DNA from: Methanosarcina flavescens
Lineage (GTDB): Archaea; Halobacteriota; Methanosarcinia; Methanosarcinales; Methanosarcinaceae
Assembly (NCBI RefSeq): GCF_001304615.2
Contig: NZ_CP032683.1
Span: 558,001-622,000, forward strand
Direction: 5' to 3'
DNA: 64,000 nucleotides
Shown: piece by piece, positions 1 to 10,858 of the stretch
Layout of the letters: each line of letters opens with the position of its first letter
How positions within the stretch are numbered: the first letter of the stretch is position 1
Program-made: the position numbers and the translations under genes
The notes under the pieces: generated by a model
Told to the model about the DNA's origin: nothing
Seen by the model: only the letters and a program-made list of their open reading frames with translations
Database searches by the model: none

Positions 1-483
1 GAGGCAGCTATCTGGGGAAGTTCAAAAACCGAAAATCTGGGAGTCGAAAAAATAATCGTAAATATCATTTCAAATTCCAATATAAGGTATATCCTTGTCT
101 GCGGGACGGAATCAAGAGGGCATCTGGCAGGTCAATCTCTGCTCGCAATTCACGCAAACGGGATTGACGAAAAGGGTAGAATTATTGGCTCTGAGGGAGC
201 GATCCCTTTCATAGAAAACATATCCAGAGAAGCAGTAAAACGCTTCCAGCAGCAGGTAGTGCTCCTTGACAGGATAGGATTGACTGACCCTGATGAAATA
301 ATGAGAATTGTGAGAAAATATAAGTACCGGGGGGAGGCTTATCAAGATGAGCCAGTAGTAACCGTCTCCCAGAAGAAAAGACAAACCACTTTCTCAGTCC
401 TTCTTTCAGGCGATATAATAATTTCTGAAGAACTGGTTATGGATGCAGCTTCAGGAATTATCTGTGAGGCAAAAGATTTCTAA
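1..483 (+). CDS. mtxA: MtrA-type corrinoid methyltransferase subunit (MtxA-like), 5' end outside window
   Basis: The reading frame is open from base 1 and ends at the TAA at 481-483, so only the C-terminal 160 residues are seen. They match MtrA, the corrinoid subunit of tetrahydromethanopterin S-methyltransferase: KTENLGVEKI, IRYILVCGTE, then RGHLAGQSL, where the His at 121-123 corresponds to the cobalt-ligating His of MtrA, then GAIPFIEN and AVKRFQQQV. The frame ends in AKDF without the hydrophobic C-terminal anchor of true MtrA, so the protein should be soluble. It is followed after 83 bp by an MtrH-like gene. This pairing matches the mtxA-mtxH genes of Methanosarcina, thought to move methyl groups between tetrahydrosarcinapterin and another carrier; the substrate is unknown. 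Family assignment is firm; the mtx label rests on context. Confidence 0.78.
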   Translation, partial: EAAIWGSSKTENLGVEKIIVNIISNSNIRYILVCGTESRGHLAGQSLLAIHANGIDEKGRIIGSEGAIPFIENISREAVKRFQQQVVLLDRIGLTDPDEIMRIVRKYKYRGEAYQDEPVVTVSQKKRQTTFSVLLSGDIIISEELVMDAASGIICEAKDF

Positions 484-566
484 TCACCAGACAAGAGATC
501 TATTCCGAGCATATGTCACGGTGTTCTGAAAAAAGATACTGACCTGTAGATTTGGAGAGTGTAAAA

Positions 567-1499
567 ATGTTTAAGTTCCAGAAAGAACAGGAAATCGTTA
601 ATATTGCAGGAGTAAAAATAGGCGGACAGCCTGGAGAGCTTCCGACCGTACTTGCAGGAACTATCTTTTATGATAAGCATGAAATTGTAGAAGATATTGC
701 AAGAGGGCTGTTTGATCGGGCTGCTGCCGAAGAATTGATAAATCTACAGGAAGCAAGTGCGGAAGAGACAGGAAACCCGCACATCATTCATATTTTCGGA
801 ACTACCCCTGAAAGCATTACCCGTTATATTGATTTTGTAGCTGAGATTTCAGATGCTCCCTTTCTTATCGACTCCCCCGAAGGAACTGTGCGTTCCCATG
901 CAGCAGAATATGTCAGCGAGATAGGGCTTGCAGATAAAGCAATCTACAACTCTATAAATCTGAGCATAAATGCTCCGGAGATTGAAGCTCTTGCTCTGTC
1001 CGATATTGACAGCTCGATTATCCTTGGCTTTAATGCAATGGACTCATCCTTGCAGGGCAGGATGGAGCTGCTGGAAAATGGGGCAGGTCTTCTCGAAGAA
1101 GGATTACTTTCAATTGCAGAAAGGTGCGGAATAGTTAACAAGCTTATAGATCCGAGCATTACCCCTATGGGAAACGGGGCGGGCGTAGCCCTCAGGATGA
1201 CGATTACCTCAAAAGCAAAATGGGGGCACCCAACAGGTTCGGGAATACATAATGCACCCTCAGCCTGGAACTGGCTAAACGAGAAGAGAGAAAAAGACCC
1301 TGTCCTCTACAAAATCTGCGATGTCGGTTCAACCTGCCTGCAACAGGCAGCTGCTGGAGATTTCATCCTCTATGGACCCATCGAGTATGCTCCGTATGTA
1401 TTTCCCATGGCTGCCATGAGCGATATAATGATCTCCGAAGCTGTAGCTGACCTCGATATTGAGCCTGCTGCCAGGCATCCTGTAAATTTACTGGTCTAA
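567..1499 (+). CDS. mtxH: MtrH-type methyltransferase (MtxH-like)
   Basis: This 310-residue protein belongs to the MtrH family, which transfers the methyl group of methyl-tetrahydrosarcinapterin to the corrinoid on MtrA. Family features are the start FKFQKEQEIVNIAGVKIGGQPGE, TVLAGTIFYDKHEIV, the SPEGTVR segment, and the run of short beta-strands of a TIM barrel such as IILGFNAMD and KLIDPSITPMGNGAG. The ATG at 567 is preferred over an upstream in-frame TTG at 552 because GGAGA at 554-558 is well spaced from it and the family starts at MFKF. Length is normal for MtrH. It lies directly downstream of the MtrA-like gene with no other mtr subunit (B-G) nearby, so the pair probably works apart from the sodium-pumping membrane complex. 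Confidence 0.82.
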   Translation: MFKFQKEQEIVNIAGVKIGGQPGELPTVLAGTIFYDKHEIVEDIARGLFDRAAAEELINLQEASAEETGNPHIIHIFGTTPESITRYIDFVAEISDAPFLIDSPEGTVRSHAAEYVSEIGLADKAIYNSINLSINAPEIEALALSDIDSSIILGFNAMDSSLQGRMELLENGAGLLEEGLLSIAERCGIVNKLIDPSITPMGNGAGVALRMTITSKAKWGHPTGSGIHNAPSAWNWLNEKREKDPVLYKICDVGSTCLQQAAAGDFILYGPIEYAPYVFPMAAMSDIMISEAVADLDIEPAARHPVNLLV

Positions 1500-1751
1500 T
1501 TCTGCTCAAAGAAGGCTAATATATTTGCTGCTTTCTGCATACTTCCTTTCGTGTGGTTAAATGGGATAAAATGAATAGGATCAAAGGAGGTACTGAAAAC
1601 ACGGATAAAGGAAACAGTGACATGGTCTTGAGTATTTTCCGAGTTTTCGATGACTCCTGGGGCTTGAGTTAGTTATAATGATGTTTATTTTTCGTGGTTA
1701 CAGGACTTGAAGTAAGTAGTATGTGTAGTTTTTATTGCATTCAAAACCTAT

Positions 1752-2219
1752 TTAACTGGGTGTTCCTTGTGGTTGTGACGCTTTGCTTCTTTGCTTCATC
1801 TTTTCGGCAATGTCGACACCGAGTCTTTTGCATTCCTGCACATCCTTATCTGTAGGTTTGTGCAGGATCCTGAGCACGGGATCTATAACAGTCATCCCCA
1901 TCTCTCGCATCTTTTCGGCTATCAGTATAGGTGCCTCTCCACTCCACCCGTAAGACCCAAAAGCAGCTCCCAACTTCCCTTTCGGATTTGTGGAAGCAAG
2001 AGTTTCGTCCATGAATTTTTCCATGGGTTGCAGCATTCTATAGTAAAAGGTTGAGGAGCCAACAGCGATTGCATCAGCTTCATTGAGATCTTCAGTTTTT
2101 ACATCATAAAAGCTAACTGCTTTTGCATCCACGTGTTTTGATTCAATCCCGCTGGCTATTGCTTCGGCCATAATTTTCGTATTCCCAGAGGTACTGAGAT
2201 AAACTACTATTGCTTTCAA
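1752..2219 (-). CDS. Flavodoxin-like FMN protein
   Basis: The 155-residue product is a flavodoxin. The N-terminal YLSTSGNTKIMAEAI is the FMN phosphate-binding loop, followed by DAIAVGSSTFYYRM and KLGAAFGSYGWSGEAP, the two further FMN-contacting loops. It should carry electrons in the cytoplasm; the partner is not shown by context. The frame stays open upstream for another 71 codons, but that stretch has no family resemblance. The TTG at 2219 (reverse strand) puts the first beta-strand at residues 1-8 and is preceded by a G-rich Shine-Dalgarno-like site, so that start was chosen; it is not certain. The gene ends in a polar tail. It lies downstream of the PAS sensor on the same strand. Confidence 0.75.
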   Translation of the reverse strand: MKAIVVYLSTSGNTKIMAEAIASGIESKHVDAKAVSFYDVKTEDLNEADAIAVGSSTFYYRMLQPMEKFMDETLASTNPKGKLGAAFGSYGWSGEAPILIAEKMREMGMTVIDPVLRILHKPTDKDVQECKRLGVDIAEKMKQRSKASQPQGTPS

Positions 2220-2424
2220 TCTTATCCCCCATCCTGCGTAAAATCCTTTATTAACTCCAGTAATGGACAAAAAGTGAGCAAAGACAGGCTTGCATATTTT
2301 TCCCAGTCCGGTAAAGTAAGGCAAGTCCCAGGATTTTCTCACTTTCAACCCTGTATTAATTATAAAAATTATTTTAAATAAGGGTTTCGTCCAGAGCCAG
2401 GCTGACCTCTGGTACGAAAAGATA

Positions 2425-4188
2425 TTACCCAAGATCTGCCACTATACGGATAGGGGCTATATAATTTACTACCTGGAGGGCAATACTTTCAAGGAAATTG
2501 CGTACATGCTGGGGAATTCGGTCTATTGTATGAGAAGCAAAGTTAAGGCTGCCTATAATCTCTCCCCGGTGCTTCATGGGGATCACGGCTACAGCAGTGA
2601 TTTTTTCCTTCCTGATAATGTCTGTCATTTCATCTGAAAAAAAGTCCATCCTGTAGACAGGTTTTTCAGTCCAGATTTGCCGCGCTTCAGGAGAATCTGC
2701 ACTGTACGTTGAAACACTTTTCACGAATTCGGAAGAAAGTCCTCTGTGTGCAACCAGATTAATCTGGTCCAGAAGCTCGTCTTTCAAATATATACCTGCG
2801 GCATCTATCTCTTCTATAGTCAGACAAGCATCAAGGATCTTGTTGAGCATGGTTTGAAGATTCCAGGTAGAACTGAGGGACACACCCAGTTCCCTCTGGA
2901 TATCAAGCATTTTCTCAGCTTCTTTTCTCTCAGTCACATCTATAATTATTCCCTGAAGATGGGTAGCCTCGCCTTTACTGTCTCGTTGGATAAATGTTCG
3001 CTCTTCAACCCAGCGTACTCTGCTATCTTTCGTAAAAATTCTGTACTCCATCTCGAAGGAATCATATCCTTCTCTTACTGAGCGTGCCAGACTTTCGGCG
3101 ACTGCCTGGATATCATCTCTGTGGATTATGTTCCCGTAAAGTATATTTCCAGAAAGGAAGTCTTCTACCGAGTACCCTAACTGCGTTATATTCTCAGACA
3201 CAAAAACTACAGGCCAGTTTTCTACATATTTCCATAAAAAAGCTATTGTCGGGCTTTTATTAATTATGGTTCTCAGCGTTTTCTGCATCTCGAGCGACTT
3301 CCTGAGGGCATTCTCAATTCTCTTTCTATGGGTTATATCCAGTACTATTCCCTGAAAGCAGGCTACCCTTCCATCCTTTTCTCTCTGGATAAAGGTTTTC
3401 TCGGTTACCCACAGCATGTCTCCAGCTTTTGTGAAAATCCTGTATTCCGAACTGAAGCTTACCTCTCCTTTCTGGATGCTCCTTTCCAGTTCCTCTTCTA
3501 CTCTTCTCAGGTCATCTGGATGTATGATTCGCCCGTATTGAATCTTCTGTGAGAGGAAATCGTCAACCGTATACCCAAACTGTATCACATTATCCGAGAC
3601 GAAAATCGAAGGCCAGAACTTTTCATTTTTCCAGAGAAAGATAACTGCAGGGCTGTTGTTAATTGCTGTCGTCAGCACCTGTTGCATTTTAAGAGTTTTT
3701 TCCAGTTCTTCTTCGCTTTTCTTCCGTTTGGTGATATCGAGCACCACTCCCTGGAAGTGCGTTGCTTCTCCGTCTGCATTTCTCTGGATAAATGTTCTTT
3801 CATTTATCCACCGCACATCTCCTGCTTTCGTAACAATCCTGTACTCCATGCCGAACGCAGAAACTCCGCTTTTTACTCTTTTCTCAAATTCCTGTTCAAC
3901 CCTCTTAAGATCTGCTGAATATATTATGTCTTTATGCCTCACCCTGCCAGAAGTGAAGTCTTCTGTCGTGTATCCGAACTTTGTCACGTTTTCGGAGACA
4001 AACTCTACAGGCCATTTGTTTTCGTTCTTCCAGAGAAAGAGCACTACATGGCTGTTGTTAATCATCATTCTCAGAGTTTCTTCTTTTTCCAGAGTAGCCT
4101 GGAGAGCCTCACCTCTCAAGTTATTTCCATTGCTAGCAGTCTGGAAATTTGCATTTAAAGCTTCTTTACCCTTCGAACTCTCATCCAC
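2425..4188 (-). CDS. Sensor protein with three PAS/PAC domains and one GAF domain, no output domain
   Basis: The 587-residue protein has three tandem PAS/PAC units (about residues 37-155, 170-288 and 300-420) that are clearly duplicated: each holds NNSxxxxFLWKNExxWP, FVSxNVxxFGYxxxDF, a conserved EYRIxTKxxxxRW segment and a terminal DIT-R-K. A GAF domain follows (about 430-580), ending in LESIALQVxNYIA. There is no signal peptide or membrane helix, so it is cytosolic. In Methanosarcina such sensors usually run on into a histidine kinase; here the stop comes right after the GAF domain, with no kinase, HTH or GGDEF part. It may act through protein contacts or be a truncated kinase. The start is a GTG at 4188 with AGGTGGTT upstream. 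Confidence 0.8.
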   Translation of the reverse strand: MDESSKGKEALNANFQTASNGNNLRGEALQATLEKEETLRMMINNSHVVLFLWKNENKWPVEFVSENVTKFGYTTEDFTSGRVRHKDIIYSADLKRVEQEFEKRVKSGVSAFGMEYRIVTKAGDVRWINERTFIQRNADGEATHFQGVVLDITKRKKSEEELEKTLKMQQVLTTAINNSPAVIFLWKNEKFWPSIFVSDNVIQFGYTVDDFLSQKIQYGRIIHPDDLRRVEEELERSIQKGEVSFSSEYRIFTKAGDMLWVTEKTFIQREKDGRVACFQGIVLDITHRKRIENALRKSLEMQKTLRTIINKSPTIAFLWKYVENWPVVFVSENITQLGYSVEDFLSGNILYGNIIHRDDIQAVAESLARSVREGYDSFEMEYRIFTKDSRVRWVEERTFIQRDSKGEATHLQGIIIDVTERKEAEKMLDIQRELGVSLSSTWNLQTMLNKILDACLTIEEIDAAGIYLKDELLDQINLVAHRGLSSEFVKSVSTYSADSPEARQIWTEKPVYRMDFFSDEMTDIIRKEKITAVAVIPMKHRGEIIGSLNFASHTIDRIPQHVRNFLESIALQVVNYIAPIRIVADLG

Positions 4189-4382
4189 TTTTTAACCACC
4201 TGTACAGCGCTCTGTAGTATCCACTTTTCTCCTGTTTTCTTTCTTTTAATCTATATTTCATTTATATAATTACGTTTCCATTAAACTTCGTTTTCTTGGT
4301 TACCTTATCCTATTTTCAGATTTATATCAATGTAAAATGCTCATAACTCTAGACAAGTCAGTTTATAATTCTTAAAAATTCG

Positions 4383-5390
4383 GGCTCTGTAGAAATCCTC
4401 TAAATTCTGTTTTTACCCAAAAATTATAAAAATAAAATTGTAAAAATGCTCCTTAATTTTTTTGTCCACACAAAAAACAAAGGAGCAATTGCTATTGTCA
4501 TCAAATAAGTATATTAAATTTATTGATCTCAGTCTTAAAACGGTTCAGTCTTCCAGACTGAACCTTTACTCCTGCAAATATTCCAAACGTGTTTATACTC
4601 AACATCAGCTTCTTGTTCTTGTTTTATTGAAGGAGTATATAAGTACAGACTACCGTGACTTTGTAGAACTTGTTGACCTCATGAACAATATAAAGGAAAA
4701 ACTTGACCTTGATAAGGTTCCTCATTACACTACTCTTCAAAAGTTTGTGTCCAGAATTCCCTCTTCATTGTTTAACCTAATTTTGTCAAAAACTCTAAAA
4801 CTATTTTACTCACATGGAGAAAAAGTTCTCATTACGGCAATTGATGCAACAGGATTTACGAGTTCTTATGCAAGTCATTATTATTCTAAGAGAACAGGGA
4901 AGCTCCGAAGGAGCTTCCTTAAAACTTCAATATCAGTAGACACTATTAAAAAAGTAATATTAGGATGGAAAATTAGCCAAAAAACAGATCATGATGTCAA
5001 GCATGCAAAGACTCTGATAAGACAATCAAACAAGTCAAGAAAGTCTCAATGTTATGTGATGGATAAAGGATATGATTCCGAAGAAATTCATACTCTAATA
5101 AGAGAAGAGATAAAAGCAGATTCAATAGTACCTTTGAGAGAAAGAAAAAGAAAGAGAATAAACGGAAAATATAGAAAACAATTAAACAAAGACTTTGATA
5201 AGATCAAATACAATAGAAGGAATATAGTAGAGACAATAATATCTGTTGTAAAAAGAAAATTTGGAGAAACATTAAGAGCAAGAAAGGTTAGAAATCAAGT
5301 AAAAGAAGTAAAAGTTAAACTAATAGTCTATAATATAAACAAAAAAGTAATACAATTATTATGGATTAAATTAAGGATTTCTACAGAGCC
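4383..5390 (+). mobile_element. Complete insertion sequence, 1008 bp, IS5-like
   Basis: The element is bounded by inverted repeats: GGCTCTGTAGAAATCCT at 4383-4399 and its exact reverse complement at 5374-5390. The 8 bases AAAATTCG occur directly outside both ends (4375-4382 and 5391-5398), a perfect target duplication, so the copy looks recently inserted and intact. One transposase gene fills it. An 8-bp duplication and a single DDE transposase fit the ISH1-like group of the IS5 family; that subgroup is inference. The interior is more AT-rich than the neighbouring genes. A 120-bp MITE at 8927-9046 has the same ends. Confidence 0.9.
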
Positions 5391-5427
5391 AAAATTCGGT
5401 TTCATATATCAGACTCTATTTCCATAA
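4495..5427 (+). CDS. DDE transposase of the insertion sequence
   Basis: The 310-residue protein has an IS4/IS5-type catalytic core: [17 protein letters not shown] (first Asp), [14 protein letters not shown] (second Asp, in the typical D-K-G-Y-D context) and a basic C-terminal helix around [19 protein letters not shown] holding the Glu. The preferred start is the TTG at 4495, 8 bases after AAAGGAGC; upstream in-frame TTGs at 4462 and 4489 are possible. The frame does not stop inside the element: it reads through the right inverted repeat (coding ISTEP) and stops at 5425-5427 in host DNA, so about 12 C-terminal residues come from the insertion site. A perfect 9-bp hairpin with a GAA loop lies within the gene at 4898-4918. 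Confidence 0.88.
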
Positions 5428-6068
5428 TTAAATTTTATATATCCTGGAAAGTAGTAAGAATCCTTACTCCTGTATGAGTCTGCTGTTCAGAAATCCATTA
5501 AAACATGTTAAGAAAGGCTCTAATTATACAGAATTCAAATTAAAGATTATGTAAAAACTATGTGCGCATTTACTAGATTAAAAATAGAATAAACTGTGAA
5601 CGGGTATAGTCCTGCCGGATTGCTTTTAAATTGTGTTCGTTTTTAGGGTGTGATCTTGTAAATGTGGTCAAGAGCAGGCCCGTTCACCATGCTACTGGCT
5701 CAAAGCTAAGATTGAATATATAAATATTTGGATATTATTATAATATGTTACCCTTTTGTGCAAAATGCTGAAATTTTTCGCAGTTCTGACAAGACTTTTT
5801 ATCCTCTACTGGCTTATATATTATTCGAAAACAGTTATTCCTGCCAGATCTTTTACTTATGTTTTTCAGGCAGGCTTTCTATTCTGGTCGCACTATACCA
5901 GTCATATTGATTATCTTTCATCCAGCCTTCCAGCTCTTTTTCTTCAAACGTTCCGGTATCTTCATCTTCTTTTTTGCAATTTTTCCCCAACCTGTTTATA
6001 CTATGAGGTTTTTTTCCTACCTATACATTATACTTAACTCTCATCATTAAACTGTAAGGAGATTTGCA
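5428..6068. other. AT-rich intergenic region upstream of ilvD
   Basis: No convincing protein gene lies here; the open frames in 5728-6050 are rich in Phe, Leu and Tyr and resemble chance reading of T-rich DNA. The stretch holds the candidate structured RNA at 5596-5687 and the TAAGGAG ribosome site of ilvD just before 6069. Host sequence resumes at 5391 after the insertion sequence. Confidence 0.6.
5596..5687 (+). ncRNA. Candidate structured RNA (long closing stem)
   Basis: GTGAACGGG at 5596-5604 pairs perfectly with CCCGTTCAC at 5679-5687, and after a six-base bulge CCTGC at 5611-5615 pairs with GCAGG at 5674-5678. Inside, TCTTG and CAAGA near 5653-5673 can form a third stem. An A/T-rich TATA-like run (TTAAAAATAG, about 5578-5587) lies just upstream, though a little close. 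The segment is more GC-rich than its surroundings. It does not fold as a tRNA and matches no RNA family I recognise. The strand is assumed, because the stems are symmetrical. Confidence 0.35.
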
Positions 6069-7730
6069 ATGAGAAGTGCTATTATCAAAGAAGGACCGGA
6101 ACGTGCTCCCAACCGTTCACTTCTGAAAGCTACAGGAGTAACAGATTCCGAGATGAGGAAGCCGTTTATCGCAGTTGTAAATTCCTGGAACGATATAATT
6201 CCTGGTCATATCCATCTAAATAAACTTGCAGAAGCCGTGAAAGCCGGAATCAGGAACGCTGGAGGGGTTCCTTTTGAATTCCATACTATAGGGGTATGTG
6301 ACGGAATCGCAATGGGGCATGAGGGCATGAAATATTCCCTTCCCAGCAGAGAGGTTATTGAAGATACAATAGAGCTTATGGTTAAAGCCCACCAGTTCGA
6401 CGGTATTGTCCTTATCCCTTCCTGCGATAAAATTGTGCCAGGCCATCTTATGGCAGCAGGCAGACTTGATATTCCTGCAATTGTTGTAACCGGAGGGCCT
6501 ATGCTTCCGGGTTATGTCGACGACAAATATACAGACCTTATCTCGGTTTTCGAAGGTGTGGGAGCGTATAGGGCAGGTAAACTCTCAGAGGCTGACCTAA
6601 AAAGGCTTGAAAATCTTTCCTGTGCAGGAGCCGGGTCCTGTGCAGGGATGTTTACCGCAAATACTATGGCCTGCATGACCGAAGCCCTGGGGTTGAGCCT
6701 TCCGGGCTGTGCAACGGCCCATGCAGTAGACGCAAAAAAGGTACGTATTTCCAAGGAATCGGGCGAGCGCATAGTTGAGATGGTCCATGAGAACCTGACT
6801 CCAAGAAAGATTGTCAACTTCAAATCACTTGAAAACGCTATAATGGTTGATATGGCGATTGGGGGAAGCACAAATACAACTCTGCACCTTCCCGCCATTG
6901 CCCACGAATTCGGGCTGACTCTTCCTCTTGAGAAATTTGATGAACTGAGCAGGACAACTCCCCATCTAATCTCACTGCGTCCAGGCGGACCAAATTTTAT
7001 GCTGCATTTTGACAGAGCAGGCGGAGTTCAGGCAGTCATGCAGAGACTTTCCTCCAAACTCTATCTGGATCAGCTTACAGTGAATGGCAAAACTATCGAG
7101 GAAAATCTGAGTGAATTTGAGATTGTTAACCCGAAGCTCAATAAAGAAATAATTGCAACTCTTGAAGCGCCCATTCATGCCGAGGGAGGAATCGCAGTCC
7201 TTAAAGGTAGCCTCGCCCCTGACGGCTCGGTTGTTAAACAGGCAGCCGTTGATCCGAAAATGTGCGTTCATACAGGCCCTGCGCGGGTTTATGACCGTGA
7301 AGAAGATGCTATGGAGAGCATCCTTGCAGGAGAGGTAAAACCCGGAGATATTGTCGTCATCCGCTATGAAGGCCCAAAAGGTGGTCCTGGTATGCGGGAA
7401 ATGCTTGCAGCTACCGCCGCAATCGGAGGCATGGGTTTGCTGGAGTCAGTAGCTCTGGTTACTGATGGACGCTTCTCCGGAGGCACTCGCGGGCCATGTA
7501 TAGGGCACGTCTCTCCAGAAGCCAGTGAAGGAGGACCAATAGCCCTGGTAAAAACCGGGGATATGATAGAAATCAATATTCCTGAGAGAATCCTGAACCT
7601 GAAAGTTTCAGAAGAAGAGCTTAAGCAACGGAAGGCTACTTTTGTACCACTGAAAAAGGAAGTTACAGGTTACCTTGCCAGGTACCAGCGTTCCGTCCAC
7701 TCTGCAAACACAGGTGGAATAGTCGACTGA
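6069..7730 (+). CDS. ilvD: Dihydroxy-acid dehydratase
   Basis: IlvD dehydrates 2,3-dihydroxy-isovalerate and 2,3-dihydroxy-3-methylvalerate to the 2-keto acids of valine and isoleucine, in the cytoplasm. The 553-residue length is typical. Family motifs are [32 protein letters not shown] (Cys119), [14 protein letters not shown] (Cys191), [11 protein letters not shown] and the C-terminal GHVSPEA-EGGPIA. Cys119 and Cys191 are the expected iron-sulfur ligands. The plant-type CNYH cysteine is replaced by Gly (PGHIH), so the cluster type is left open. The ATG at 6069 follows TAAGGAG at a good distance. No other branched-chain amino acid gene is adjacent. Confidence 0.95.
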
Positions 7731-7860
7731 GCTCTCCATATATATTAAAATTTTTGCGTTCGGAGGCTTGCCCTTCATTTTTTTAACTTTTCTCCATGTC
7801 TGAATTATAACTAGCCCTCATGAATGCAAGAAGCGTTGCATCGCGACCGTTGTGTTGCAA

Positions 7861-8018
7861 TCCTTTTACGAAAAGGCTTGTGATCAAACCTTTTCTTAAA
7901 AAGTTTATGATTATCACCAACCGTTGAGCCGCTTGACCACGCCGTCACGCCGGTTTTTGATCAAACTTTTTTTCAAAAAGTTTGCGCTCAAGCAGTTTTT
8001 TTCAAAAGGCTTGTGAGA
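7861..8018. repeat. Dispersed intergenic repeat, copy 1 (palindromic)
   Basis: The block between ilvD and the regulator gene contains AAAAGGCTTGTGA twice (7871-7883 and 8004-8016), TTTTTGATCAAA at 7954-7965, and a perfect hairpin AAACTTTTT-TTC-AAAAAGTTT at 7963-7983. The same words in the same order and nearly the same spacing recur at 35150-35209. It looks like a repeat family placed between genes rather than coding DNA. Confidence 0.6.
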
Positions 8019-8052
8019 GAGGATTGTTGATCCCAGGTTACTGGTTGCCAGT

Positions 8053-8850
8053 TTATTCATTTGGTATTTGACTAATCCGGGTAGAATTTCTGAGTAGTTC
8101 GTCAAAAAGCTCGTCTCCAAACTTAAGAGCAGAAGGATCATAACTTATCAGACTTTCCCTATCGAAATGTTTCTGATTTTTCGGGAAAAGGGAAATCATG
8201 ACAAATCTATCGGTTACAGTAAGATTCGCGATCCTGAGTTCTCCAGAGTAAAGGAAAAATTTTGTGTTTTCAAGGGAAAGCATACTTCGGAAATCTTCAA
8301 GGTAATCCACAGAATAACGTTGAAAAACGGGTTCTGACATAAGAAAAGAGAATTCAACCCCATCTTTTGCAAGTTCCTGACATATAGAAATAAGTGAAGG
8401 ATCAAAGTAAGCTATGCATTCAAGAATACGAGTGGATTTTGAAATGTTTTCAACGATTTCTGGATCAAGCTCGAACATCCTGTCCAGATCGGGTTGAATC
8501 AGTTTAGACTTTTTGAGTTCTCCAAGCCGCTTTCTAAAAGCAGGAGGAATTCCCTGAAGATCCCTTTCAGCCCAGTAGTCAAAATTATCCTCAAAGACGT
8601 CAACTATATTTACGAGTGGCTGCATTTTTTCAACAAGGACCTTTCCTATAAGCGAGAGTCTATAGCTTTTTTCTTCCTGAACAACCAGGGATTTTTCTTT
8701 TAATTTTTTTATCTGAGGCAGAATAGCAGTGGATGTTACATCAAGGGCTCCCTTAATTTCATCCATATTTTTTGGCCCATCTTTCAGAAAGAGTAATAAC
8801 TGCTTTCGTCTGTTGGAAAGAAAAATCAGCTCTAGAAGTTCTAATTGCAA
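8053..8850 (-). CDS. ArsR-like HTH regulator with DUF1724 domain (Msr-like), paralog 1
   Basis: The 265-residue protein opens with a winged helix (about residues 5-75): LIFLSNRRKQLLLFLKDGPKNMDEIK, then TSTAILPQIKKLKEKSLV. The rest is the DUF1724 type domain with ERDLQGIPPAFRKRLGELKKSKLIQPDLDRMFELDPE and a C-terminal VTDRFVMISLFPKNQKHFDRESL. Proteins of this build in Methanosarcina (Msr regulators) control methyltransferase isozyme genes; the target here is unknown. A paralog lies at 11955-12785 with the same two-domain layout. The start is a TTG at 8850 with AGGAGA upstream; no ATG lies near the start of the domain. It stands alone, with a MITE between it and the next upstream gene. Confidence 0.82.
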   Translation of the reverse strand: MQLELLELIFLSNRRKQLLLFLKDGPKNMDEIKGALDVTSTAILPQIKKLKEKSLVVQEEKSYRLSLIGKVLVEKMQPLVNIVDVFEDNFDYWAERDLQGIPPAFRKRLGELKKSKLIQPDLDRMFELDPEIVENISKSTRILECIAYFDPSLISICQELAKDGVEFSFLMSEPVFQRYSVDYLEDFRSMLSLENTKFFLYSGELRIANLTVTDRFVMISLFPKNQKHFDRESLISYDPSALKFGDELFDELLRNSTRISQIPNE

Positions 8851-8926
8851 CCCTTCAGTCTCCTCTCGAGTTTTATGTGGCTAAAAAGATTAAAGCCATC
8901 AAAGATATATAAGTTACTACTGTTTC

Positions 8927-9046
8927 GGCTCTGTAGAAATCCTCTGAAATAACCAATCTTAACAAATTAAAACTGAATTGCCTGATTCAATTTTGCTGAG
9001 AACTTTAAGTCTATTAATGACGATTAAGTAGGTTTTCTACAGAGCC
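8927..9046. mobile_element. MITE, 120 bp, with ends of the 4383-5390 insertion sequence
   Basis: The left end GGCTCTGTAGAAATCCTCT (8927-8945) is identical to the insertion sequence end; the right end AGGTTTTCTACAGAGCC (9030-9046) matches it with one mismatch. ACTGTTTC flanks both sides (8919-8926 and 9047-9054), a perfect 8-bp target duplication, the same length as that of the full element. The 120-bp interior has no coding potential. It was very probably moved in trans by the transposase of that family. Confidence 0.88.
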
Positions 9047-9202
9047 ACTGTTTCCTACTTTTTTATTTGAATAGATTAAAGATTCTTTTCTTCCATGTTA
9101 AGCTTCGATATAGAAAATGAGGCTGTAAACAAGCAGTAAGTAAAAACTACTTATCAGATAAAAGAGACAGGATGGAGAGATTTAAAATTAAAAAACGTAT
9201 AG

Positions 9203-9266
9203 AGTCACCCTGCTGTGGAAAGCTCACGCTACCACCCCGGGTCAGGGAGCCTTTTTCAGGCTCCTT
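9203..9266 (+). ncRNA. Candidate small RNA with end hairpin
   Basis: A GC-rich island in AT-rich DNA follows TTTAAAATTA (9181-9190), a good TATA-type box about 25 bases upstream of 9205-9215. CCCTG near 9208 can pair with CAGGG at 9243-9247. A hairpin GGAGCCT-TTTTC-AGGCTCC occupies 9246-9264. No open frame with a ribosome site is present. It could equally be part of a leader or a decayed element. Confidence 0.3.
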
Positions 9267-9377
9267 AAGTTAAATGTTAAAGCTGGAACCTGGATAATAG
9301 AGATATTCTCAGAATTGATACTATTGATTTTACCTGCACTTAAGAATCCAGCGGAAATTTCGGCATGAGAGTCATTC

Positions 9378-9785
9378 TCAGGCAGAAGCTTCCTTGGTCA
9401 GGATATAAGCAACCATTTCAGGGTTAAGTTTGCTTTCCCTTGCGACCTTTTCTTCAATTCTCTCAGCAGGTGTACCCTCCGATTTCAGTTCTCTGATTTT
9501 CTCAATCACTGAGGAAGGAATACTGTAATACTCGTTAATATCCTTCCTGTGACCCCAGACATCGCCTTCAATAAGCTGAATCCTCTGCATCTCAAGAAAC
9601 ATCTCTATGGACTTTGAAACCGTACGCCTGTAAGATTTGGGTAATTGAATTACCTCAATTTTCGGGCAGGTTTCGACAAGTGCAAAAATATCCTTGTTCG
9701 ACGGCCTGAAAGCCAAGTGAACAACACGTTCATTAGGATTGAGAGTGAATATCTCCTCTCTGGAACTAACTACTCTAATTTTCAT
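9378..9785 (-). CDS. DUF1699 family protein
   Basis: This 135-residue cytosolic protein has the DUF1699 pattern found in Methanosarcina: the start MKIRVVSSREEIFTLNPNER, HLAFRPSNKDIFALV, CPKIEVIQLPKSYRRTVSKS and a C-terminal helical part with IREL and MVAYILTKE. Function is unknown. The phrase PKSYRRTVSKSIEMFLEMQRI may be DNA-contacting by its basic, helical look, but that is a guess. The ATG at 9785 was kept because the family starts there. Confidence 0.78.
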   Translation of the reverse strand: MKIRVVSSREEIFTLNPNERVVHLAFRPSNKDIFALVETCPKIEVIQLPKSYRRTVSKSIEMFLEMQRIQLIEGDVWGHRKDINEYYSIPSSVIEKIRELKSEGTPAERIEEKVARESKLNPEMVAYILTKEASA

Positions 9786-10375
9786 GTATACAATTCCCCC
9801 ACTGTAAAGTTCTTATGTTTTTACCTCAAAATAAACTACTTATACTTATTATAAATATTTATCTGCCAGCGCTTTTATTTTTTACACAGTATCCTGTTTT
9901 TGGTCTACTGTCTGATCCTTTTAAATGCTGGAAAAAGCCTGAAAGGATAAAACCTATAAAAATAATCATAACTCAGAAATTTTAGTCCCCGCAGGAACTA
10001 TCTCGGCAAAGAAACCAGAGAAAGAAAGGATCAGGTATAAATATATGAAGTTTTTAAAGGCTATTGTCCTTGTAATCTGCCCTATCTTGTATCTCTCCTG
10101 AGTCTACCTTTTAACTTACAGTAAGTCTTACAGAGTGTCAGGTCTGGAAAAAAACCAGTACATAATGGAAGAGTCAGGGCAGAAAAAGCTTACTGCAGTA
10201 TCTGCAACAGCCTTACAGATTGCGATATTCTGAATTTGATCCTGGTAAAAAACCATTGTTAAAAATACCGCATCTATGCTGGCTTGTATCCTGCCGCAAA
10301 GAAAGAACAAAGGTTGAATCATTATTCAACCCGAAATAAACTATTTTTGAAATTAGATTGAGCTGAATAATAGGC
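9786..10375. other. Intergenic region without a supported gene
   Basis: No gene is supported. An ATG at 10045 starts a hydrophobic, signal-peptide-like run MKFLKAIVLVICPILYLS that stops at 10101, so at most a dead or micro-gene is present. The 3' end of fae lies at the right edge. Confidence 0.5.
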
Positions 10376-10858
10376 TCAGGCAAATGGGTGTTTTGCGGAA
10401 TCTTTCTTAGCAAGCGCTTCTTCAACAGTCGGGCTGCCTTCCATTGCCCTTGCTATTGCAAGCTTTGTCGCTTCATAGTTATATTCGTAAACTTTGTCAT
10501 TGTCTTTTGCATCCCACTCGATAAAGACGGAAACAATAATAAAAGTGTCATCTGCCTGCTCTTGAGGGAGCACGCCATCAGCCACGGAATCCATAACTGC
10601 CTTTGCTACCGCAGCCTGAGCCGGCCCGAACATAAGGGCAGCCTGCGATGCATTCTTTATCGTTACCTTGTTTACAAGCAGTGTCATGGGTTTAGGTTGG
10701 AGATTTGGTTCAAGAACTGCGAGAAGTGGGGTATGACCCTGCCTGGGCATTGCAAGCGAGTTAATAAATGCTGCTTCAACTGGCCCTCCTCTTGGCCCGA
10801 TAACAAGGTCTATGTGTGCAATTTCCGGACCAGAACCTACGAGAGCTTCCCCTACCAT
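10376..10858 (-). CDS. fae: Formaldehyde-activating enzyme (Fae)
   Basis: Fae condenses formaldehyde with tetrahydromethanopterin (sarcinapterin) to the methylene form, in the cytoplasm. The 160-residue protein shows the family start VGEALVGSGPEIAHIDLVIG, in which the His of AHIDL is the catalytic base, then FINSLAMPRQGHTPLLAVLEPN, a TLLVNKVTI strand, the MFGPAQAAVAKAV helix and the C-terminal AKKDSAKHPFA. The frame extends 11 codons upstream to a GTG at 10891, but a TATA box at 10901-10908 would place transcription start near 10876, so the ATG at 10858 is preferred. It is not fused to hexulose-phosphate synthase. It sits among regulators rather than carbon-metabolism genes. Confidence 0.88.
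   Translation of the reverse strand: MVGEALVGSGPEIAHIDLVIGPRGGPVEAAFINSLAMPRQGHTPLLAVLEPNLQPKPMTLLVNKVTIKNASQAALMFGPAQAAVAKAVMDSVADGVLPQEQADDTFIIVSVFIEWDAKDNDKVYEYNYEATKLAIARAMEGSPTVEEALAKKDSAKHPFA

What the first reader, a model, noticed from the sequence alone, without database searches (positions are those of the whole stretch)
8919..9054. 120-bp MITE with the ends of the nearby insertion sequence and its own 8-bp target duplication
The left end is identical to the insertion sequence at 4383 over 19 bases, the right end over 16 of 17, and ACTGTTTC is duplicated outside both ends. This is a non-autonomous element mobilised by that transposase family, 3.5 kb from a full copy. It sits upstream of an Msr-like regulator gene and may alter its promoter.
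Basis: seen in the sequence. Interest (0 to 1): 0.75.

Follow-up and report, generated by a model that had tools for sequence, protein, structure and literature searches.

The report
Recently mobile 120-bp IS5-type MITE
A 120-base "hitch-hiker" transposon with no gene of its own jumped in front of a regulator gene of a methane-making archaeon, most likely using the enzyme of a nearby insertion sequence; it is a clear, recent example of a known kind of element.

Summary
Window 8927-9046 is a 120-bp element with 17-bp inverted ends (16/17). The ends match those of the 1008-bp IS at 4383-5390, and ACTGTTTC is duplicated at 8919-8926 and 9047-9054. The reading as a MITE moved by that IS5-family transposase is strongly supported. 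The genome holds 16 copies at 93-100% identity, 11 with a perfect 8-bp duplication of their own, and 21 near-identical full IS copies, which also make 8-bp duplications. The orthologous site is empty, with one ACTGTTTC, in related Methanosarcina genomes. All eight MITE sites tested are empty in the nearest relative, so those copies inserted after that split. The proposed promoter effect is unproven: the insert lies 13 bp upstream of a conserved TATA-like box, and the duplication leaves the conserved block beside that box in place. IS5-linked MITEs in Methanosarcina are already published, so this is a new member of a known kind. Side observations: larger composite units that moved; the relative's record shows the full IS joined at the very same nucleotide; and the transposase gene lacks a stop codon inside the IS in every copy examined.

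The parts
8927..9046 (+). 120-bp MITE
   Evidence: 16 copies at 93-100% identity in the own genome; perfect 8-bp duplications; orthologous site empty in relatives
8927..8943 (+). left terminal inverted repeat GGCTCTGTAGAAATCCT
9030..9046 (-). right terminal inverted repeat (16/17)
8919..8926 (.). left copy of target duplication ACTGTTTC
   Evidence: a single copy at the empty site in relatives
9047..9054 (.). right copy of target duplication ACTGTTTC
4383..5390 (+). full-length partner IS (1008 bp, IS5 family), one of 21 near-identical copies
4375..4382 (.). left target duplication of the IS, AAAATTCG
5391..5398 (.). right target duplication of the IS, AAAATTCG
4495..5427 (+). transposase frame (DDE_Tnp_1; NF033579 IS5 family); start approximate; its stop lies 37 nt outside the IS
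8053..8850 (-). FilR1/Msr-like regulator gene, 265 aa, TTG start conserved in relatives
8906..8913 (-). TATA-like box of that gene, largely conserved in relatives; 13 bp from the MITE
   Evidence: by eye and by conservation

Best explanation
A MITE: a 120-bp gene-less element whose ends are recognised by the transposase of the 1008-bp IS5-family element present in 21 copies in the same genome. The transposase moves it in trans, with an 8-bp staggered cut that gave the ACTGTTTC duplication. The copies whose sites are empty in the nearest relative inserted after the split from it. Shown: ends, duplications, copy number, partner, empty sites. Inferred: that this IS's transposase, rather than a close relative's, did the work, and that the MITE can still move.
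For: 16 copies at 93-100% identity and further divergent members in the own genome. 11 of those 16, and the divergent copies L017, L021 and L022, carry perfect 8-bp duplications at unrelated sites. 21 full IS copies with the same ends, 14 of them with exact 8-bp duplications. IS5-family transposase model NF033579, 226 bits against cut-off 140. Empty site with a single ACTGTTTC in G029 and G018; none of the nine relatives aligned carries the insert. Eight of eight tested MITE sites are continuous and empty in G029, four of four in G018. The IS has 12 full copies at about 100% identity in G029, so it was recently active in the closest relative too.
Against: The interior (about positions 20-103) does not come from this IS, so the MITE is not a plain internal deletion of it; another IS5 relative with the same ends may be its parent. 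Five of the 16 copies lack a perfect duplication at their own ends (L006, L009, L010, L012, L014); L006 and L009 abut IS fragments. No transposition was observed.
Confidence: 0.95

Rival explanations
1. The MITE is mobilised by a different, related IS5-type transposase that shares the 17-bp ends; the nearby IS is only a cousin.
For: Similarity to the IS is limited to about 20 bp at each end, whereas about 50 bp of the MITE's left side is shared with 122-bp MITEs in G013 and G015. G029 carries 12 near-identical IS copies but only two MITEs close to this one.
Against: No other element with these ends and a transposase was found in the own genome in the searches made; the 17-bp ends and 8-bp duplication agree with this IS.
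Confidence: 0.12
2. The insertion rewires the regulator's promoter (outward promoter, displaced operator or roadblock) and is kept for that.
For: It lies in the upstream region of the gene, about 13 bp from a conserved TATA-like box, and displaces further upstream sequence by 128 bp.
Against: The duplication leaves the conserved block up to ACTGTTTC next to the TATA-like box; no TATA-like octamer facing the gene was seen by eye inside the MITE; most other copies also lie between genes in AT-rich targets; no Rfam family in 8600-9400.
Confidence: 0.1
3. An intergenic repeat of another kind (REP or BIME-like, or a structured RNA) rather than a transposon.
For: Short, multi-copy, intergenic, folds better than shuffles (z = -3.7).
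Against: The fold is dominated by the 17-bp ends; exact 8-bp duplications and empty sites show insertion; no Rfam match.
Confidence: 0.01

Closest known systems
MITEs linked to IS5-family elements in Methanosarcina (Kamoun et al. 2013, PMC3852290: ISMma12-linked 140 bp, 24 copies, IR 16, DR 3; ISMac15-linked 252 bp, 12 copies, IR 17; ISMba19-linked 147 bp, 5 copies, IR 15)
   Same: Same genus, IS5-type partner, similar length class, 15-17-bp ends, 5-24 copies
IS5 family, NCBIfam NF033579 'transpos_IS5_2'
   Same: The partner's transposase scores well above the curated cut-off
   Different: The transposase frame has no stop inside the element
Prokaryotic MITEs in general (review PMC10969869; for example Correia elements)
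   Same: Gene-less, inverted ends, target duplication, thought to be mobilised in trans, mostly between genes
   Different: No outward promoter was recognised here

Membership tests
MITE | short, no transposase gene, terminal inverted repeats | tested here: met
   120 bp, 17-bp ends at 16/17; no ORF of 80 aa or more overlaps it
MITE | target-site duplication | tested here: met
   ACTGTTTC here; perfect 8-bp duplications at 11 of the 16 near-identical copies
MITE | multiple dispersed copies | tested here: met
   16 near-identical copies plus divergent ones
MITE | shares ends with an autonomous element in the same genome | tested here: met
   19 bp left, 16/17 right, with an IS in 21 copies
MITE | insertion shown by an empty orthologous site | tested here: met
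MITE | mobilised in trans by the partner transposase | not testable with these tools
   needs a transposition assay
IS5 family (partner IS) | DDE transposase of IS5 type | tested here: met
   PF01609 at 3e-21; NF033579 at 5e-67, 226 bits against cut-off 140
IS5 family, ISH1-type subgroup | 8-bp target duplication and subgroup sequence | tested here: inconclusive
   8-bp duplication met; that ISH1-type elements make 8 bp is from memory, and no ISfinder comparison was possible

The most novel reading that the evidence does not exclude
The site ACTGTTTC beside this regulator's promoter is a preferred target, hit independently by the MITE here and by an end of the full IS in the nearest relative. 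In addition, MITE and IS ends combine into larger gene-less units that themselves transpose, so the family grows by capturing neighbouring ends.
Probability: 0.3. Interest if true: 0.4.

Novelty: new member of a known kind. Interest (0 to 1): 0.25.

Why it matters
It gives a clean set of recent archaeal MITE insertions with a near-identical autonomous partner in the same genome and empty sites in a close relative, which makes transposition in trans directly testable in Methanosarcina. It does not change any general view.

Tried and rejected
A first alignment of the empty sites was made in the wrong orientation, because whole-genome loci are not strand-turned, and was redone. Rfam on 8600-9400 gave nothing. 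A locus in G012 (L140) that might hold an autonomous parent with the MITE's left end shows no transposase-sized ORF (part of it is masked). The structured-RNA reading was rejected because the fold is dominated by the inverted ends. Paper searches found general Methanosarcina MITE reports but not this family, and one search on stop-less IS5 transposases found nothing to the point.

Full report
The observation. The 17-bp end motif occurs only at the four IS and MITE ends of this window at up to 3 mismatches, against 0.24 expected. The IS at 4383-5390 is 1008 bp with 17-bp perfect ends and the 8-bp duplication AAAATTCG.

Copies. The window lies at 558001-622000 of a 3,283,688-bp single-contig genome; the genus Methanosarcina follows from the named relatives. 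The MITE has 16 copies at 93-100% identity, seven of them at 100%, and ten further diverged or partial matches. Eleven of the 16 carry perfect 8-bp duplications: L001-L005, L007, L008, L011, L013, L015 and L016 (L003 is the window copy). L006 is the end part of a larger unit that has its own duplication; L009, L010, L012 and L014 have none. Divergent full-length copies L017, L021 and L022 also have perfect duplications.

Partner. The IS has 21 full copies at 99-100% identity, 14 with exact 8-bp duplications. The transposase matches PF01609 and the NCBI IS5-family model NF033579 well above its cut-off. The nearest relative, G029, holds 12 copies that match the window's IS at about 100% identity; the 11 ordinary copies read have perfect duplications. 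Its backbone is about 92-94% identical to this genome. The IS has therefore moved recently, probably with exchange between the lineages (inference).

Empty sites. A query of the two flanks joined over one ACTGTTTC matches without a break in G029 (94% over 614 bp), G018 (85%), G021 (82%) and G015 (80%). Alignment shows TATATAAGTTACTACTGTTTCCTACTTTTTTATTT uninterrupted in G029 and nearly the same in G018; none of the nine relatives aligned carries the insert. Seven further MITE sites joined in the same way are all continuous in G029; with the window site this is eight of eight. Four of four sites aligned are empty in G018. G029 itself has two MITEs of the family (97 and 93%) and G018 one (97%), none with a perfect duplication. 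The eight copies tested therefore inserted in this genome's lineage after its split from G029.

Origin of the interior. Similarity between MITE and IS ends after about 20 bp on either side. Related MITEs of about 120-124 bp occur in many Methanosarcina genomes; in G013 and G015 a 122-bp subfamily in many copies shares the left 50 bp at 86-88%. The MITE thus looks like a long-lived family of its own that uses the IS's ends, not a recent internal deletion of this IS.

Effect on the gene. The regulator gene (8850 to 8053, minus strand; FilR1_middle domain) has a TTG start and a TATA-like box at 8906-8913 that are conserved in relatives. The MITE begins 13 bp upstream of that box. Because the target was duplicated, the conserved block up to ACTGTTTC stays in place; only sequence further upstream is moved by 128 bp. 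A promoter effect is possible but has no support.

Target preference. Over 40 insertion sites (14 MITE and 14 IS in this genome, 12 IS in G029 and G018) the duplicated 8 bp are AT-rich in the middle, with G enriched at the first and C at the last position. Nearly all MITE insertions lie between genes as judged by a simple ORF scan. There are two hints of site reuse. One is CTATATTT-IS-CTATATTT-MITE-CTATATTT in this genome. The other is in the G029 record: an IS end is joined to the very nucleotide where the MITE entered here (AAACAGT, the complement of ACTGTTT), at the junction of a tandem duplication whose other side is GTTTTATG, while both sites also occur empty in the same record. The G029 contig ends lie in this duplication, so an assembly artefact or a mixed culture cannot be excluded.

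Comparison with what is known. MITEs linked to IS5-family elements are published for Methanosarcina acetivorans and M. barkeri (PMC3852290). This element meets every criterion of a MITE that could be tested here. It is a new member of a known kind.

Noticed in passing
window 4495-5427; all 21 IS copies (L055-L075) and copies in G018, G020, G003: The transposase frame has no stop codon inside the IS; it reads through the right inverted repeat into the target DNA, so each copy ends in a different tail (stop 7 to 211 nt outside the element). The same is seen in copies only 87% identical from other species.
   Followed up: partly
G029 (L145) 1-10542: Tandem duplication (7-2864 = 7685-10542, 100% identical) with an IS at the junction joining two sites that also occur empty in the same record; one of them is the same nucleotide as the window MITE's target. 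It could be an IS-made duplication, a mixed culture or an assembly artefact, since the contig ends lie here.
   Followed up: partly
L006 1357-1620; L018 and L019 1501-1781: Larger composite gene-less units: two 72-bp IS right ends plus a MITE (264 bp, duplication GTAATAAG), and a 281-bp unit of a MITE relative, about 120 bp of other sequence and an IS right end, present twice without a mismatch at sites with different duplications.
   Followed up: partly
L063 1501-2636 (own genome near 2192582-2193717): IS and MITE side by side with three copies of the same 8-mer CTATATTT: a second insertion exactly into the first one's target duplication.
   Followed up: no
L005 57-1620: A MITE copy sits about 175 bp past the last repeat of a CRISPR-like array of at least 18 repeats, just beyond a stretch that is conserved beside other arrays.
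   Followed up: no
G013, G015: A related 122-bp MITE subfamily in many copies in these two genomes, sharing the left 50 bp at 86-88%.
   Followed up: no
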